Positions 42,617-63,268 of a stretch of 64,000 nucleotides of DNA are shown here, piece by piece. The notes beneath the pieces are model-generated. The model was given only the letters and a program-made list of their open reading frames with translations. It was not told the DNA's origin and did no database searches. The stretch is taken from assembly GCF_025118155.1 (NCBI RefSeq), contig NW_026251399.1, positions 248,001-312,000 on the forward strand, read 5' to 3'. Source of the stretch: Cokeromyces recurvatus. Lineage: Eukaryota > Mucoromycota > Mucoromycetes > Mucorales > Mucoraceae. The position numbers and the translations under genes are program-made. Position 1 is the stretch's first letter. The number at the start of each line of letters is the position of its first letter.

Positions 42617-43204
<588 letters not shown>

Positions 43205-46990: not shown

Positions 46991-47503
46991 ATGGAAAAGT
47001 TTAAGGAGGTAAGGAAAAAAAAAAAAAAGAAGAGAGAGAGATATTTTATGGAATTCTAAAAATTAATTATAATAATGAATATAGAAACTCGCTACTCTTC
47101 GTGCCGAAGTTGATACTGCCACTAGACGTGCTGAAGAAATGGAACAAAAGGCAAAGCAACTCGAAGCTGAGCATGAACAAAAAGATAGCAAGTTGAATAA
47201 CCTTCAAAATCGTGCTAAAGATTTAGAGGATTCGCTTGAAACTGCTGAAGCCAATTTGAAACAAGCTACTTCTGAGTAAGTTACGAAAAAAAAAATGTAT
47301 ATGGGGAAGAAGAAAATAACACTATTTTGGTATTATATAGCTATCGTGAAGCAGATTTACGTGCTGAACAATTAAGTAAGAAGGCTATCAAATTAGAACA
47401 AGAAATTGCTGTCTGGAATAAGAAAAATGCTGAATTGGAAGCCAAATATCAAGCTGCTAAGGCTGAAATGGATGAATTAGAGGGTCAAATGGAAGGCGTG
47501 TAA
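46991..47503 (+). CDS. tropomyosin, short form
   Basis: Three exons. Exon 1 is only MEKFKE (46991-47008); exon 2 starts KLATLRAEVDTATRRAEEME; exon 3 begins YREADLRAEQLSKK and ends LEGQMEGV with TAA at 47501-47503. The whole protein is one heptad coiled coil with Ala clusters, and the start matches fungal tropomyosins (MDKLREKINAARAE in fission yeast). Tropomyosin polymerises head to tail along actin cables and guides myosin V and formin activity. It is about 123 residues; yeast Tpm2 and Cdc8 have 161. N- and C-termini align while about 38 residues, one actin-binding period, seem missing from the middle. No extra exon is visible in the two introns. Confidence 0.85.
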
Positions 47504-47674: not shown

Positions 47675-48771
47675 TTATGGTTCAACGGGAATATCAAGGT
47701 CAGGACCATTATTTACAGGAACAACTTGAGTAGGATTAATATGTCTATGTGACATATAATAATGTTTCTTGATGTGATCCATATGAACAGTTTCTTTGAC
47801 TATAATAAAAATAAAAAAGTGAGTATGTAATAAAACCAGATAAAAAGAAAGAAAACGAAGTCTTCGCTTACCTCCTGGCTTTTGATAGATTCGACGTGTC
47901 CATTTCAAAATATTGGGATAATTATGTTCAATTGAGCCCAAATTACACTTGAAGTGTCCAAAATAAACAGGATCAAATCTATTAAACAAATAAATAAATA
48001 GACACGAGGTAAAATAAAAATAAAAATAAATACCTGACAATAGTTGTAAATAAACGAATATCTGCTTCAGTAAATGTATCCTGAACTAAATATTTCTTTC
48101 CCTCGAGCATTTTCTCAACACGATCCAAAGATTTAAATAAAGGATATACATGATTTTCATCTATGAGAAACAAGTTAAATGATTACATAACATCGCCCTC
48201 CCCCTTTCTTTCTTTCTTACAAGCATCTTGAGTAGTAGCAAACCCAGACTTATAAACACCATTATTAATGGTATCGTAAATCCATTCATTATTTTCATCA
48301 ATTTCTTTTTGAAGATGTTCGGGATAATAATTCAATTCTGCCTTTTCTTTACTTAAAAAGCGATTAAAGGCAGTATTAAAGATACGAATAATTTCCGAAC
48401 TTTCGTTATTAACGATTGTTTTAAGCTTTTTATCCCACAAGACGGGGACAGTGAATCGACCTTGATAGTTGGGATTAACCATCAAATAGAGATCTCGAAG
48501 ATAAGAAGCATTGTTGATCGTATCTGGGATAGCACCAGGACATTCTTCAGCTGTTGAAAACTTCCATCCTTGATCTAACATTAAGAAATCAACGACAGAG
48601 AGACCAATGAAGCTGTCTAGACCTTTCAAGTTACGAACAATAGCTGTACGATGAGCCTATATCATAAGTTTAATTAAAATTTAAAATTAAACAAAAGATG
48701 TAGGGTCCATATTTTATTTTACCCAAGGACAAGCCCATGAAATGTAAAGATGATAACGATCACTAATTCAT

Positions 48772-48806
<35 letters not shown>

Positions 48807-48993
48807 CACGACCCTTATGTATAATATATAATATCACTTACCGTTCAGCAGCAAACTTTGCATTTGGATTATCTTCAATTATATCACGGAAAATAGATTG
48901 CTGACGTCTAAATTCACCATCTTTAGAAGCCCACTTGAGAATAGCAGGTTGTTCATTAGAAGACTTGTCAGTAGTAGTAGTAGCAATAGACAT
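47675..48993 (-). CDS. glutathionyl-hydroquinone reductase (Ecm4/Xi-class GST)
   Basis: Starts MSIATTTTDKSSNEQ at 48993; five to six exons, ending DLDIPVEP at 47675. The catalytic motif reads YHLYISWACPWAHRT with Cys, and is split by an intron at CPW|AHR. Further blocks: LSVVDFLMLDQGWKF, LYLMVNPNYQGRFTVPVLWD, TIVNNESSEIIRIFN, LFKSLDRVEKMLEGKKYL, TEADIRLFTTIVRFDPVYFGHF, NILKWTRRIYQ and a C-terminal INPTQVVPVNNGPDL. This is the standard order for Ecm4/YqjG enzymes, which reduce glutathionylated quinones. One intron holds a (TA)n repeat (48775-48800). The gene starts 165 bases downstream of the tandem array, so the array borders or forms its promoter. Confidence 0.9.
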
Positions 48994-49158
48994 AGTTTGT
49001 TTAAATATAAAAGTCTTTGTTGTTGATAATGTATTAAAAAATGAAGATGAAGTTTTCGATATAAAAATCCTTTTGATAACAAAAAGAGCATAAAGATGAT
49101 GATAAATAAATAAAAAGAATTAAACTTATTTATGCTGCTGCTTTAAAAAAAAAAAAAA

Positions 49159-50630
49159 ATGGGGACTGCTATTATGAACTATTTATTGATTTTTTTTGTC
49201 ATTGCTGACATCATCAGCCGTAATAAGCTTTTTCTGCGGGACTTTTTTTTTTTTTTTTATTAATGTTTGATTATAAATCTAGTAGGACATTTATATTCTT
49301 ATTATTCAAACTACATTATCTACACCAGTACCACCAAATACACTAATAATAAATATGAAATATATATTAACACATGATGTCGTACAATTAAAAAAAAAAA
49401 AAATGGGGACTGCTATTATGAACTATTTATTGATTTTTTTTGTCATTGCTGACATCATCAGCCGTAATAAGCTTTTTCTGCGGGACTTTTTTTTTTTTTT
49501 TTTATTAATGTTTGATTATAAATCTAGTAGGACATTTATATTCTTATTATTCAAACTACATTATCTACACCAGTACCACCAAATACACTAATAATAAATA
49601 TGAAATATATATTAACACATGATGTCGTACAATTAAAAAAAAAAAAAATGGGGACTGCTATTATGAACTATTTATTGATTTTTTTTGTCATTGCTGACAT
49701 CATCAGCCGTAATAAGCTTTTTCTGCGGGACTTTTTTTTTTTTTTTTTATTAATGTTTGATTATAAATCTAGTAGGACATTTATATTCTTATTATTCAAA
49801 CTACATTATCTACACCAGTACCACCAAATACACTAATAATAAATATGAAATATATATTAACACATGATGTCGTACAATTAAAAAAAAAAAAAAATGGGGA
49901 CTGCTATTATGAACTATTTATTGATTTTTTTTGTCATTGCTGACATCATCAGCCGTAATAAGCTTTTTCTGCGGGACTTTTTTTTTTTTTTTTTATTAAT
50001 GTTTGATTATAAATCTAGTAGGACATTTATATTCTTATTATTCAAACTACATTATCTACACCAGTACCACCAAATACACTAATAATAAATATGAAATATA
50101 TATTAACACATGATGTCGTACAATTAAAAAAAAAAAAAAATGGGGACTGCTATTATGAACTATTTATTGATTTTTTTTGTCATTGCTGACATCATCAGCC
50201 GTAATAAGCTTTTTCTGCGGGACTTTTTTTTTTTTTTTTTTATTAATGTTTGATTATAAATCTAGTAGGACATTTATATTCTTATTATTCAAACTACATT
50301 ATCTACACCAGTACCACCAAATACACTAATAATAAATATGAAATATATATTAACACATGATGTCGTACAATTAAAAAAAAAAAAAATGGGGACTGCTATT
50401 ATGAACTATTTATTGATTTTTTTTGTCATTGCTGACATCATCAGCCGTAATAAGCTTTTTCTGCGGGACTTTTTTTTTTTTTTTTTTATTAATGTTTGAT
50501 TATAAATCTAGTAGGACATTTATATTCTTATTATTCAAACTACATTATCTACACCAGTACCACCAAATACACTAATAATAAATATGAAATATATATTAAC
50601 ACATGATGTCGTACAATTAAAAAAAAAAAA
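49159..50630. repeat. tandem array, six copies of a 244-246 bp unit carrying the TVP18 terminal exon
   Basis: Units begin at ATGGGGACTGCT at 49159, 49403, 49648, 49894, 50140 and 50386, spaced 244-246 bases; the last ends near 50630. By eye the copies differ only in the lengths of their A and T runs. Each copy contains, on the minus strand, an acceptor (TTATTAG) and a 38-nt exon ending in TGA, with stop codons at 49306, 49551, 49796, 50042, 50289 and 50534. Plus-strand frames starting MGTAIMNYLL repeat three times because of the array and are not genes. See the TVP18 gene for why this is its last exon. Confidence 0.95.
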
Positions 50631-51488
50631 AGGTGGGGAATGAATAAAAGTTTACCTTGAACTAGCAAATGGTTGACCCTTAATTGCAGCACCAGCTATA
50701 TTATAAACAAGAAGAGTAAAATATATACATATATATAACACCACATTCTATGTTAAGTTATAATAATAATAATAATAAAGTTTTACCATAAGAAAGAGCA
50801 GCGAGAAGAAGTAAGACACCACAAGCAATTAAGCTACTAGTATGAATAAGTCTTGAAAGGAACATGACAATAGCAAAACTAGAATAATTGTTAAGAAGCA
50901 CGATACATTTATATTAGCAGTAACAGGATGATATGACTTACATAAGGTATAAGATGGCACGGAACCAAGCATTTTCAAAGTATGCAATGAATGAATCACT
51001 ATTATTATTATAAATAACATTAAATATCAATGTCTATTAATGATAACAAACATGATGAATTTTACAATTTAGGACCAGTAGGACAGCATCTTGTCAAAAG
51101 TGGTATTTCAATAAATATTAAAATGACAGCGATAATCCTAATAAATGTAAAAAACTTAATCTATGTATATACAATTAGGTATAATACCAATGTATTTTAT
51201 GATTTACCATCCAATAATACTAAATACAACATGTCCCAAAAATCCAACAATACCAAGTATAATTAGTACTAAAATACAAATATATAAAATCAGTTTTTTT
51301 TTCTTTTATATAGAATGAGAAAAAAAAAAGGTTTTACAAATAATGGAAACGACACCAAGCCTTAATAAATATTATTTATATCATTATGATTAGTTTTCCA
51401 AATCTAGGTCCATATTTATCTGCTTTTTTTTTTACCATTGACCATAAAGTGAAAAATTCATTGATTTAACTTCATCAGAGAGACCCAT
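50534..51488 (-). CDS. TVP18: Golgi membrane protein Tvp18
   Basis: Exons: MGLSDEVKSMNFSLYGQW (start 51488); LIILGIVGFLGHVVFSIIG; IIAVILIFIEIPLLTRCCP with TGPKL; DSFIAYFENAWFRAILYLM; FAIVMFLSRLIHTSSLIACG; AGAAIKGQPFASS; then SVFGGTGVDNVV and TGA. The sequence follows Tvp18 (FSIYGQW, EIPFLLRICP, GGTGV near the end), a four-helix protein of Golgi vesicles. The last donor (TCAAG|GTAAAC, exon end 50656) joins across an 84-nt intron to the 38-nt exon at 50571-50534 in the nearest copy of the tandem array, in frame. The other five copies supply identical alternative last exons further downstream. About 150-160 residues, as expected. Confidence 0.85.
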
Positions 51489-61303: not shown

Positions 61304-61322
61304 CATGCCAAAGCTAAATTAA
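59593..61322. other. 1.7 kb gene-free region
   Basis: No coding signal on either strand. T runs at 59850-59866 and 61270-61294, A run at 61219-61231 and (AAAAT)n at 61086-61110. No RNA gene recognised. The transposon inserted at the high edge. Confidence 0.5.
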
Positions 61323-61324
61323 TA

Positions 61325-61425
61325 CACTATTTCCGGAAATTATTCGTTCATAAAAAATAAAAATTTCGTTCACAAAAAAATTAAAAAATAGTTCACAAAA
61401 AGATTTTAAAATTCATTCGTTTTTA
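61325..61425 (+). repeat. left terminal inverted repeat of the transposon
   Basis: Begins CACTATTTCCGGAAATTATT and contains TTCGTTCA and TTCGTTCACAAAA units and AAAGATTTTAAAA, all repeated in inverse at the right end. TTCCGGAA is a perfect palindrome. Confidence 0.88.
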
Positions 61426-61446
61426 ATGAACGAAATAAGCGAAATA

Positions 61447-62763
61447 TTAAACTGGCTTTCGATTCAAGCAATCATTAAACTTATCAACAGAGTAGCGGCA
61501 GAAACCTTGAAGGTCACTGAGCAAAATATTGTTGCATGAATCTCGGATTCTTGATGTCATTGTCTCTTCCTCCAATAACCTTTCTCGCTTAAGTTTACTT
61601 TTGACTACTGACCAAAATTGTTCAATAGGGTTCAATTCAGGTGAGTAAGAAGGAAGATATATGCAACGATATCCACGACCTTCAATATACTTCTGTATAT
61701 CTTCGTGTTTATGAATGGGGGCGTTATCCATTACCAGATAATAGTCCTTAAATTTTGGATGTAAATCCATGACATCCAAACAGCTAGCAATGAAGTTAAA
61801 ATAATGACCAGTAACTGTGCCCCCTTTCGTTGCTTGTTTAGGAACAGGTTTACTTCCCTCTGCTTTTCTTTTTTTATTTGGAGCCTGAATTTTTGGTCGT
61901 CTTACTCTAATATTAATTACGCCATGTGCACATATGGCTCCTAGTATAGTTGTTGTTTTTGCCCTAGTTTTAGGTACAACAACTACAGCCCTTTTTCCTT
62001 TTCTAGACCAAGCTACTGATCTCTTCATGTTAATATGAAACGCAGCTTCATCTATGAAAACGCAATTGCTGAAATAATCCATATCAGTTTCAAGTATCTT
62101 TTTCACCCAGTGGCACCGCTCCTCAATTTTTTCAGGACTATTTCTTTCTATTGAGTGGAAATGAGCTCGTTTAAGGGTGATATTGCATTTCTTGGTTACA
62201 AAGTTATGAACTGCTGATTTTTTTATTTCAATACCGGGGAATTGACTAGTGAGACCTTCTATCATTTCTTCCAATGTAGAAGATGACTTTTCGTCAATGA
62301 AATTGATCAGAAACTGTTTATGTTTCTCTGTAAGAATAGGAGGTCTACCAGCTTTTCTACCACTTCCAGTTTGTCTCAGACTCATTTCTTCATCCCCAGC
62401 AAGCTCTGCTTTCTTTTTCCAAGTTTGTGCCGTACTTTGAGGCACTTTTATTTCCTCAGCAGCGGCACGTACACTCATCCCTTTCTCATAAATAAGGTAA
62501 AAAAAGTAGTTTTTGACTTCAGGCTTATAAGTTCGATATGTTCTTTTATTTTCATTGTTATCTTTTTTTTCTTCGTCCTTCGTAACCACTTGTTCAATCT
62601 TGGCAGGTTTTTCAGGTGGCTTCAAGTCCAAGTACGTGTCGTAATTAGTAACATCCTCAAGAGGATATTCTAATTCATCAACTTCCATCTCAAGAACTGC
62701 AACTGGTTCGCCTTCTTCATTGCGAAGGTTTCCTTTACCATCTTCATGTATAAATTGGTCCAT
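61447..62763 (-). CDS. DD34E transposase (Tc1/mariner/IS630 superfamily)
   Basis: Single exon, 438 residues from MDQFIHEDGKGN. The N-terminus is acidic, followed by a helix-turn-helix DNA-binding region (YEKGMSVRAAAEEIKVPQ, STAQTWKKKAE, GRKAGRPPILTEKH). The catalytic core has Asp in CVFIDEAAFH, Asp in YLVMDNAPIHKH and Glu in ELNPIEQFW, with 34 residues between the second Asp and Glu, the Tc1-type spacing. A basic insert (VRRPKIQAPNKKRKAEGS) lies between the first two catalytic Asps. It is longer than typical Tc1 transposases (about 340) because of the N-terminal extension and this insert. No stop or frameshift. Both inverted repeats lie outside the gene. Confidence 0.92.
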   Translation of the reverse strand: MDQFIHEDGKGNLRNEEGEPVAVLEMEVDELEYPLEDVTNYDTYLDLKPPEKPAKIEQVVTKDEEKKDNNENKRTYRTYKPEVKNYFFYLIYEKGMSVRAAAEEIKVPQSTAQTWKKKAELAGDEEMSLRQTGSGRKAGRPPILTEKHKQFLINFIDEKSSSTLEEMIEGLTSQFPGIEIKKSAVHNFVTKKCNITLKRAHFHSIERNSPEKIEERCHWVKKILETDMDYFSNCVFIDEAAFHINMKRSVAWSRKGKRAVVVVPKTRAKTTTILGAICAHGVINIRVRRPKIQAPNKKRKAEGSKPVPKQATKGGTVTGHYFNFIASCLDVMDLHPKFKDYYLVMDNAPIHKHEDIQKYIEGRGYRCIYLPSYSPELNPIEQFWSVVKSKLKRERLLEEETMTSRIRDSCNNILLSDLQGFCRYSVDKFNDCLNRKPV

Positions 62764-62814
62764 TGTTAAAAAAAAATTATTTTCAAAAAATGAACGAGAT
62801 TATTTCCTGCGAGT

Positions 62815-62953
62815 AATCAACTTTAAAATCTTTTTGTGAACTATTTTTTAATTTTTTTGTGAACGATTTTTTATTTTTTTTTTAATGCATTTTTTTTTCT
62901 TTTGTGAACGAAATTTTTATTTTTTTATGAACGAATAATTTCCGGAAATAGTG
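62815..62953 (-). repeat. right terminal inverted repeat of the transposon
   Basis: Read on the minus strand it repeats the left end (CACTATTTCCGGAAATTATT, then GTTCACAAAA and AAAGATTTTAAA modules). An extra stretch of about 50 bases with another TCGTTCACAAAA unit separates the outer and inner modules, so this end has one more candidate transposase-binding unit than the left. Confidence 0.85.
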
Positions 62954-62955
62954 TA

Positions 62956-63268
62956 ATAGAAATTCTTTTCTTTTTTTGTTTGCATAAAGTAAATTTATTA
63001 TCCAATGATATCTAGCACATGCAGCCATAGCGGTGATTTAATTCAGTGTTTACTCAGCAAAAAAAAAAAAAAATAAAATAAAATAAAAAAAAAAAAATGA
63101 AAAATAAAAAAAAAAAATATATAAATATAAATATAAAATGGTATAAACCAAGTTTTCTAATATTACAATTACACTTTTTCCTTTTTCTTTTGTGATTTAT
63201 TATTTTAAAAGGACACAACTACTTTAATCTTTATTTATTTATTTTTTTTGATTCTTTCATTACACAAC
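62956..63268. other. intergenic between transposon and partial gene
   Basis: 313 bases, no gene. A-rich with (AAAAT)n at 63060-63095 and T-rich sequence before the ATG at 63269, likely promoter of the partial gene. Confidence 0.45.

What the first reader, a model, noticed from the sequence alone, without database searches (positions are those of the whole stretch)
49159..51488. The terminal exon of TVP18 has been amplified into six tandem copies
A 244-246 bp unit is repeated six times. Each copy holds, on the minus strand, an acceptor and a 38-nt exon coding SVFGGTGVDNVV plus stop. The nearest copy joins in frame to the preceding TVP18 exon (QPFASS) over an 84-nt intron, and GGTGV is where Tvp18 proteins end. 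So the unit is acceptor + last exon + 3' region, amplified beyond the gene. All six acceptors should be usable, giving one protein but up to six transcript ends, and the array also occupies the upstream region of the next gene (Ecm4-like). The copies differ only in A/T run lengths, implying very recent or ongoing expansion. A tandem array of interchangeable last exons is not something I know described.
Basis: partly seen in the sequence, partly recalled or inferred. Interest (0 to 1): 0.88.

Follow-up and report, generated by a model that had tools for sequence, protein, structure and literature searches.

The report
Six-copy repeat of a gene's end
In a Mucor-like fungus the last small exon and the tail of the gene TVP18 stand six times in a row; the nearest copy most likely does the work, and the other five look like recent passengers in front of the next gene.

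Summary
Six units spaced 244-246 bp lie at 49145-50631, identical outside homopolymer runs. Each carries, on the minus strand, a splice acceptor, a 37-nt (not 38) terminal exon and two AATAAA signals. My 8-exon TVP18 model gives a 144-aa protein identical to a deposited Cokeromyces recurvatus protein whose contig length equals that of the window's contig. A second TVP18 copy on contig 11 ends in the same GGTGVDNVV, with no terminal intron or array in my hand-made model.

Six usable alternative last exons are not shown. All 18 introns in my models of TVP18, its paralogue and ECM4 are 53-91 nt; the next acceptor would need 330 nt, and the nearest copy already holds the stop and AATAAA signals.

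Most likely this is a recent tandem duplication seeded by A-run plus TGGGGA direct repeats, with the nearest exon used and the other five lengthening the TVP18-ECM4 interval from 312 to 1,541 bp. Tandem duplications of terminal exons are already in print (oyster AOX; Drosophila Y kl-2). Unusual here: six copies without one substitution. No RNA, reads or other strains could be examined.

The parts
49145..50631 (.). Whole array, six units with the bounding A runs
49160..49389 (-). Unit 1 (nearest to ECM4, farthest from the TVP18 donor); terminal exon copy 49306-49342
49404..49634 (-). Unit 2; terminal exon copy 49551-49587
49649..49879 (-). Unit 3; terminal exon copy 49796-49832
49895..50125 (-). 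Unit 4; terminal exon copy 50042-50078
50141..50372 (-). Unit 5; terminal exon copy 50289-50325; would need a 330-nt intron
50387..50618 (-). Unit 6 (nearest to the TVP18 donor); terminal exon 50535-50571, most likely the one used
50572..50655 (-). Terminal intron (84 nt, GT-AG) of TVP18; contains the right-hand array boundary
50656..51488 (-). TVP18 exons 1-7: 51436-51488, 51338-51360, 51208-51268, 51066-51137, 50942-50998, 50787-50878, 50656-50695
   Evidence: translation identical to P0001
49145..49165 (+). Left boundary direct repeat: A15 TGGGGA
50619..50639 (+). Right boundary direct repeat: A13 GG TGGGGA
50485..50490 (-). First AATAAA of unit 6, 45 nt beyond the stop codon (second at 50414, 121 nt beyond); two per unit, 12 in the array
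47675..48993 (-). ECM4-like gene (glutathione S-transferase domains), 6 exons in my hand-made model; next gene downstream

Best explanation
A stretch running from within TVP18's last intron, through the last exon, stop codon and 3' flank, to an A run about 150 bp upstream of ECM4 was duplicated in tandem between two imperfect direct repeats (A13-15 then TGGGGA) and then expanded to six copies by unequal exchange or slippage. TVP18 pre-mRNA splices to the nearest acceptor (84-nt intron) and is cleaved at a signal in that same copy, so the protein is unchanged. The other five exon copies lie beyond the gene end and are passengers that lengthen the TVP18-ECM4 interval from 312 to 1,541 bp. Shown: the repeat, identity of copies, the TVP18 model, boundary repeats, spacing. 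Inferred: use of the nearest copy only, the route of expansion, neutrality.
For: Units identical outside homopolymers. TVP18 model matches the deposited protein. Nearest intron 84 nt; 18 of 18 introns in my models of TVP18 (7), TVP18b (6) and ECM4 (5) are 53-91 nt; average intron in Rhizopus oryzae 79 nt (PMC2699053, one passage). Two AATAAA signals in the nearest copy. Direct repeats at both array ends: in 288 kb, both strands, the motif (12 or more A, up to 3 nt, TGGGGA) gave 8 hits, 7 at the unit boundaries and 1 elsewhere (L042). T-run lengths 16,17,17,17,18,18 along the array, one of 2 monotone orders among 60 (noticed after the fact, so weak).
Against: No RNA was available, so choice of the nearest acceptor is not shown. 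Acceptors are identical and could compete. In Drosophila mauritiana many duplicated terminal exons of kl-2 are substantially expressed (PMC8794474, passage). The intron lengths come from three genes only, two of them modelled by hand without RNA. A zero-difference array may be kept uniform by continuing exchange or selection rather than be young and neutral.
Confidence: 0.7

Rival explanations
1. One reading: an array of interchangeable last exons, several acceptors used, one protein with up to six transcript ends.
For: All six acceptors, exons and AATAAA signals are identical in sequence. In Drosophila mauritiana many duplicated terminal exons of kl-2 show substantial expression (PMC8794474, passage), and oyster AOX uses its duplicated terminal exon by alternative 3' splicing (PMC5589949, passages).
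Against: Distal use needs introns of 330-1313 nt where 18 of 18 introns of the three genes modelled are 53-91 nt, and skipping of a nearer complete last exon with its own signals. In D. simulans most extra kl-2 exons have low or no expression (same passage).
Confidence: 0.1
2. The array matters for ECM4: repeated A/T tracts, bZIP-like TGACATCATCAGC sites or terminators upstream of ECM4 alter or insulate its transcription, as promoter tandem repeats do at fungal cyp51 genes.
For: The five extra units lie between TVP18 and ECM4, which point the same way; the array holds 19 A/T tracts of 8 or more and 12 AATAAA signals. Precedent for promoter tandem repeats: TR34 in cyp51A and the 126-bp repeat in Penicillium digitatum (PMC4954732, passages).
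Against: TGACATCATCAGC has 9 matches in the genome, 6 of them in the array; the other three all lie within open frames of 77-246 aa, so no regulon is seen, though their genes were not identified. That the site is bZIP-like is my recall, from no call. The 312 bp next to ECM4 are as in a one-unit allele. No expression data.
Confidence: 0.13
3. Assembly artefact: a single or fewer units expanded in assembly.
For: Copies differ only in homopolymer length, which is also what sequencing error produces.
Against: 64 contigs for 28 Mb and no N in the 288 kb examined suggest long reads, which would span 1.5 kb. This is an inference: I did not establish how the strain was sequenced (one search listed 4 papers with Cokeromyces and PacBio; of them I had opened only PMC9540331, for other terms).
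Confidence: 0.07

Closest known systems
Tandem duplication of terminal exon 10 plus part of the 3' UTR in oyster alternative oxidase (PMC5589949; passages)
   Same: Last exon with 3' UTR sequence copied in tandem at the gene end
   Different: Two diverged copies there, both used and giving two protein variants; six identical copies here, one protein, use of the extra copies unknown
Duplicated 3' exons of Y-linked kl-2 in the Drosophila simulans clade (PMC8794474; passages)
   Same: Multiple copies of 3'-terminal exons at the periphery of a presumed working gene; expression low or none for most in D. simulans, substantial for many in D. mauritiana
   Different: Exons 8-12 on a Y chromosome there; one 37-nt exon in a fungal genome with short introns here
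Drosophila lola alternative last exons (PMC10551640; passages)
   Same: Many last exons, each with its own 3' end
   Different: 20 different last exons giving different proteins; here all copies identical
Promoter tandem repeats of fungal cyp51 (TR34 of Aspergillus fumigatus, 126-bp repeat of Penicillium digitatum; PMC4954732, passages)
   Same: Tandem repeats upstream of a fungal gene
   Different: There linked to resistance or expression; here the unit derives from the neighbouring gene's 3' end and no effect is known

Membership tests
Tandem duplication of a terminal exon | Two or more head-to-tail copies including acceptor, last exon with stop and 3' flank | tested here: met
Tandem duplication of a terminal exon | The exon is the true last exon of the gene | tested here: met
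   144-aa model identical to deposited P0001; paralogue and homologues end alike; no RNA
Alternative-last-exon gene (lola-like) | More than one last exon used in mRNA | not testable with these tools
   No RNA data held; intron lengths speak against it
Alternative-last-exon gene (lola-like) | Last exons encode different C-termini | tested here: not met
   Six exon copies identical
Regulatory promoter tandem repeat (cyp51 TR-like) | Repeat lies upstream of the gene | tested here: met
   Array begins 151 bp upstream of the ECM4 start codon
Regulatory promoter tandem repeat (cyp51 TR-like) | Repeat carries a bound activator site and changes expression | not testable with these tools
   One candidate site looked at; no regulon seen
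Length-polymorphic tandem array (VNTR) | Copy number differs between isolates | not testable with these tools
   The C. recurvatus B5483 assembly (GCA_000697235.1, a table row in PMC9540331) could not be searched

The most novel reading that the evidence does not exclude
A fast-changing array of identical last exons serves as a tunable 3' end: distal copies are sometimes used, copy number changes TVP18 mRNA 3' processing and at the same time sets the distance and insulation of the ECM4 promoter, so one repeat length tunes two neighbouring genes.
Probability: 0.08. Interest if true: 0.62.

Novelty: new member of a known kind. Interest (0 to 1): 0.3.

Why it matters
It is a clean natural example of a gene end becoming a repeat unit because its boundaries fell in an intron on one side and an intergenic region on the other, so the coding sequence stays intact at any copy number of one or more. 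If copy number varies among isolates, it would be a ready-made test of how acceptor proximity and repeated 3'-end signals set last-exon choice in a fungus with short introns.

Tried and rejected
Site TGACATCATCAGC as a regulon mark for ECM4: 9 genome matches, 6 in the array; the other three lie within open frames of 77-246 aa. Unit as a mobile or dispersed repeat: matches only in this array. One 30-base piece of the unit in viral contigs: 0 exact matches. Plus-strand open frames across the units (up to 101 aa): taken as by-products of repetition, not pursued. ECM4 paralogue: only the window's own gene matched the 145-aa exon used. A first ECM4 model had one exon border off by a base and lost the frame; corrected.

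Literature on tandem last exons: 4 of 4 papers listed; 2 of 2; 10 of 10; 15 of 27 listed. TVP18 with tropomyosin: (0 papers). The species and its sequencing: 15 of 15 listed; 4 of 4 listed; passages of PMC6784888 (the species only as a co-culture host), PMC4961843 and PMC9540331 (strain B5483) were read. Mucorales introns: (10 of 10 listed), one passage of PMC2699053.

Full report
What is there. The window is C5:248001-312000 of a 28.05-Mb, 64-contig assembly. The TVP18 protein spliced from it is identical over 144 aa to a deposited protein of Cokeromyces recurvatus (Mucorales) whose contig length, 707,975, equals that of C5. Tandem Repeats Finder gives 6.1 copies of a 246-bp unit at 49143-50639. 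Exact parsing gives six units spaced 244, 245, 246, 246 and 246 bp; after collapsing runs of 8 or more A or T, all six are the same sequence, 206 bases per unit and 1,236 in all outside those runs. They differ only in an A run (13-15) and a T run (16-18).

The gene. TVP18 lies on the minus strand in eight exons; exons 1-7 span 51488-50656, and the terminal exon of the nearest unit is 50571-50535, 37 nt with the stop, after an 84-nt GT-AG intron. Pfam PF10233 matches the protein at 100.3 bits. A second copy on C11 encodes, in a model I made by hand, a 144-aa relative that also ends GGTGVDNVV, with six introns, no terminal one and no array. In an alignment of 30 of the 69 homologues found, G136, G137, G139 and V140 never vary. 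So the repeated exon is the true end of TVP18. Whether the terminal intron was gained here or lost in the paralogue cannot be told from these data.

How it arose. The left end of the array is A15-TGGGGA and the right end A13-GG-TGGGGA. The right one lies inside TVP18's last intron, the left one between TVP18 and ECM4. A run of 12 or more A followed within 3 nt by TGGGGA was found 8 times in 288 kb on both strands: at the seven unit boundaries and once in L042. This fits a first duplication between two imperfect direct repeats and later expansion by unequal exchange or slippage (inference). T-run lengths run 16,17,17,17,18,18 along the array (2 of 60 orders are monotone), as expected if neighbours are closest kin; this was noticed after the fact and is weak. 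No other array with a period of 100 bp or more was found in 224 kb of the same genome, 23 stretches of which 3 were not chosen at random; that bounds the rate only loosely.

What it does. Only the nearest acceptor gives an intron of ordinary size: 84 nt, against 330, 577, 823, 1,068 and 1,313 nt for the rest. The 18 introns in my models of TVP18 (7), its paralogue (6) and ECM4 (5) run from 53 to 91 nt; only the TVP18 model is confirmed by a deposited protein. The average in Rhizopus oryzae is 79 (PMC2699053, one passage). The nearest unit has AATAAA 45 and 121 nt after the stop. Nearest-copy use is therefore the likely state; it is not shown, as no RNA was held. For ECM4 (glutathione S-transferase domains; a single match in the genome for the 145-aa exon tested) the five extra units lengthen the distance to TVP18's stop from 312 to 1,541 bp, while the 312 bp next to ECM4 are as in a one-unit allele. 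A candidate site in the unit, bZIP-like by my recall, showed no sign of a regulon.

What is known. Tandem duplication of a terminal exon with part of its 3' UTR is described in oyster AOX, where both copies are used (PMC5589949). Promoter tandem repeats are known at fungal cyp51 (PMC4954732). I read passages of these four, not the whole texts. Four searches (in the last, 15 of 27 papers were listed) brought up no array of identical last exons by title or abstract; the library lacks most subscription papers. I file this as a new, high-copy member of a known kind.

Limits. No RNA, reads, other strains or other fungal DNA could be reached. The sample for background arrays is under 1% of the genome. 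Six identical copies may mean youth or continuing homogenisation; the data do not separate these.

Noticed in passing
proteins P0020, P0051, P0053, P0054, P0056, P0058, P0059, P0061, P0068, P0070-P0075, P0082, P0091: 17 deposited protein models from ten Mucorales genera carry both TVP18 (PF10233) and tropomyosin (PF00261) in the precomputed Pfam column (9 of 69, 16 of 75, 8 shared). In the 7 of the 17 that were aligned the join is ...GGTGV(D/S)NV followed by KL or RL of tropomyosin, and 5 of the 7 also lack a 19-20-residue TVP18 segment that P0020 keeps. Tropomyosin's first coding exon appears to be only 18 nt in this genome (46991-47008, read by eye), so a repeated annotation fusion of neighbours is one explanation; a real fusion or read-through transcript is another.
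   Followed up: partly
window 46991-47503 and C11 (L012): Both TVP18 copies in this genome lie near what reads by eye as a tropomyosin-like gene on the opposite strand (the C11 one was not searched), which suggests a duplicated segment; ECM4 was found on C5 only.
   Followed up: partly
window 61320-62960: What looks like a Tc1-type DNA transposon of about 1.64 kb: a 438-codon frame (61447-62763, minus; read as transposase by eye, no family search), inverted end regions with 23-bp tandem repeats, and four other nearly full-length copies at 98-100% identity. A C. recurvatus element CreTc1 of 1,672 bp is listed in PMC5630946 (passage); identity with it was not tested.
   Followed up: partly
window 42715-43030: A 316-bp ATATAC microsatellite (52.7 copies).
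   Followed up: no
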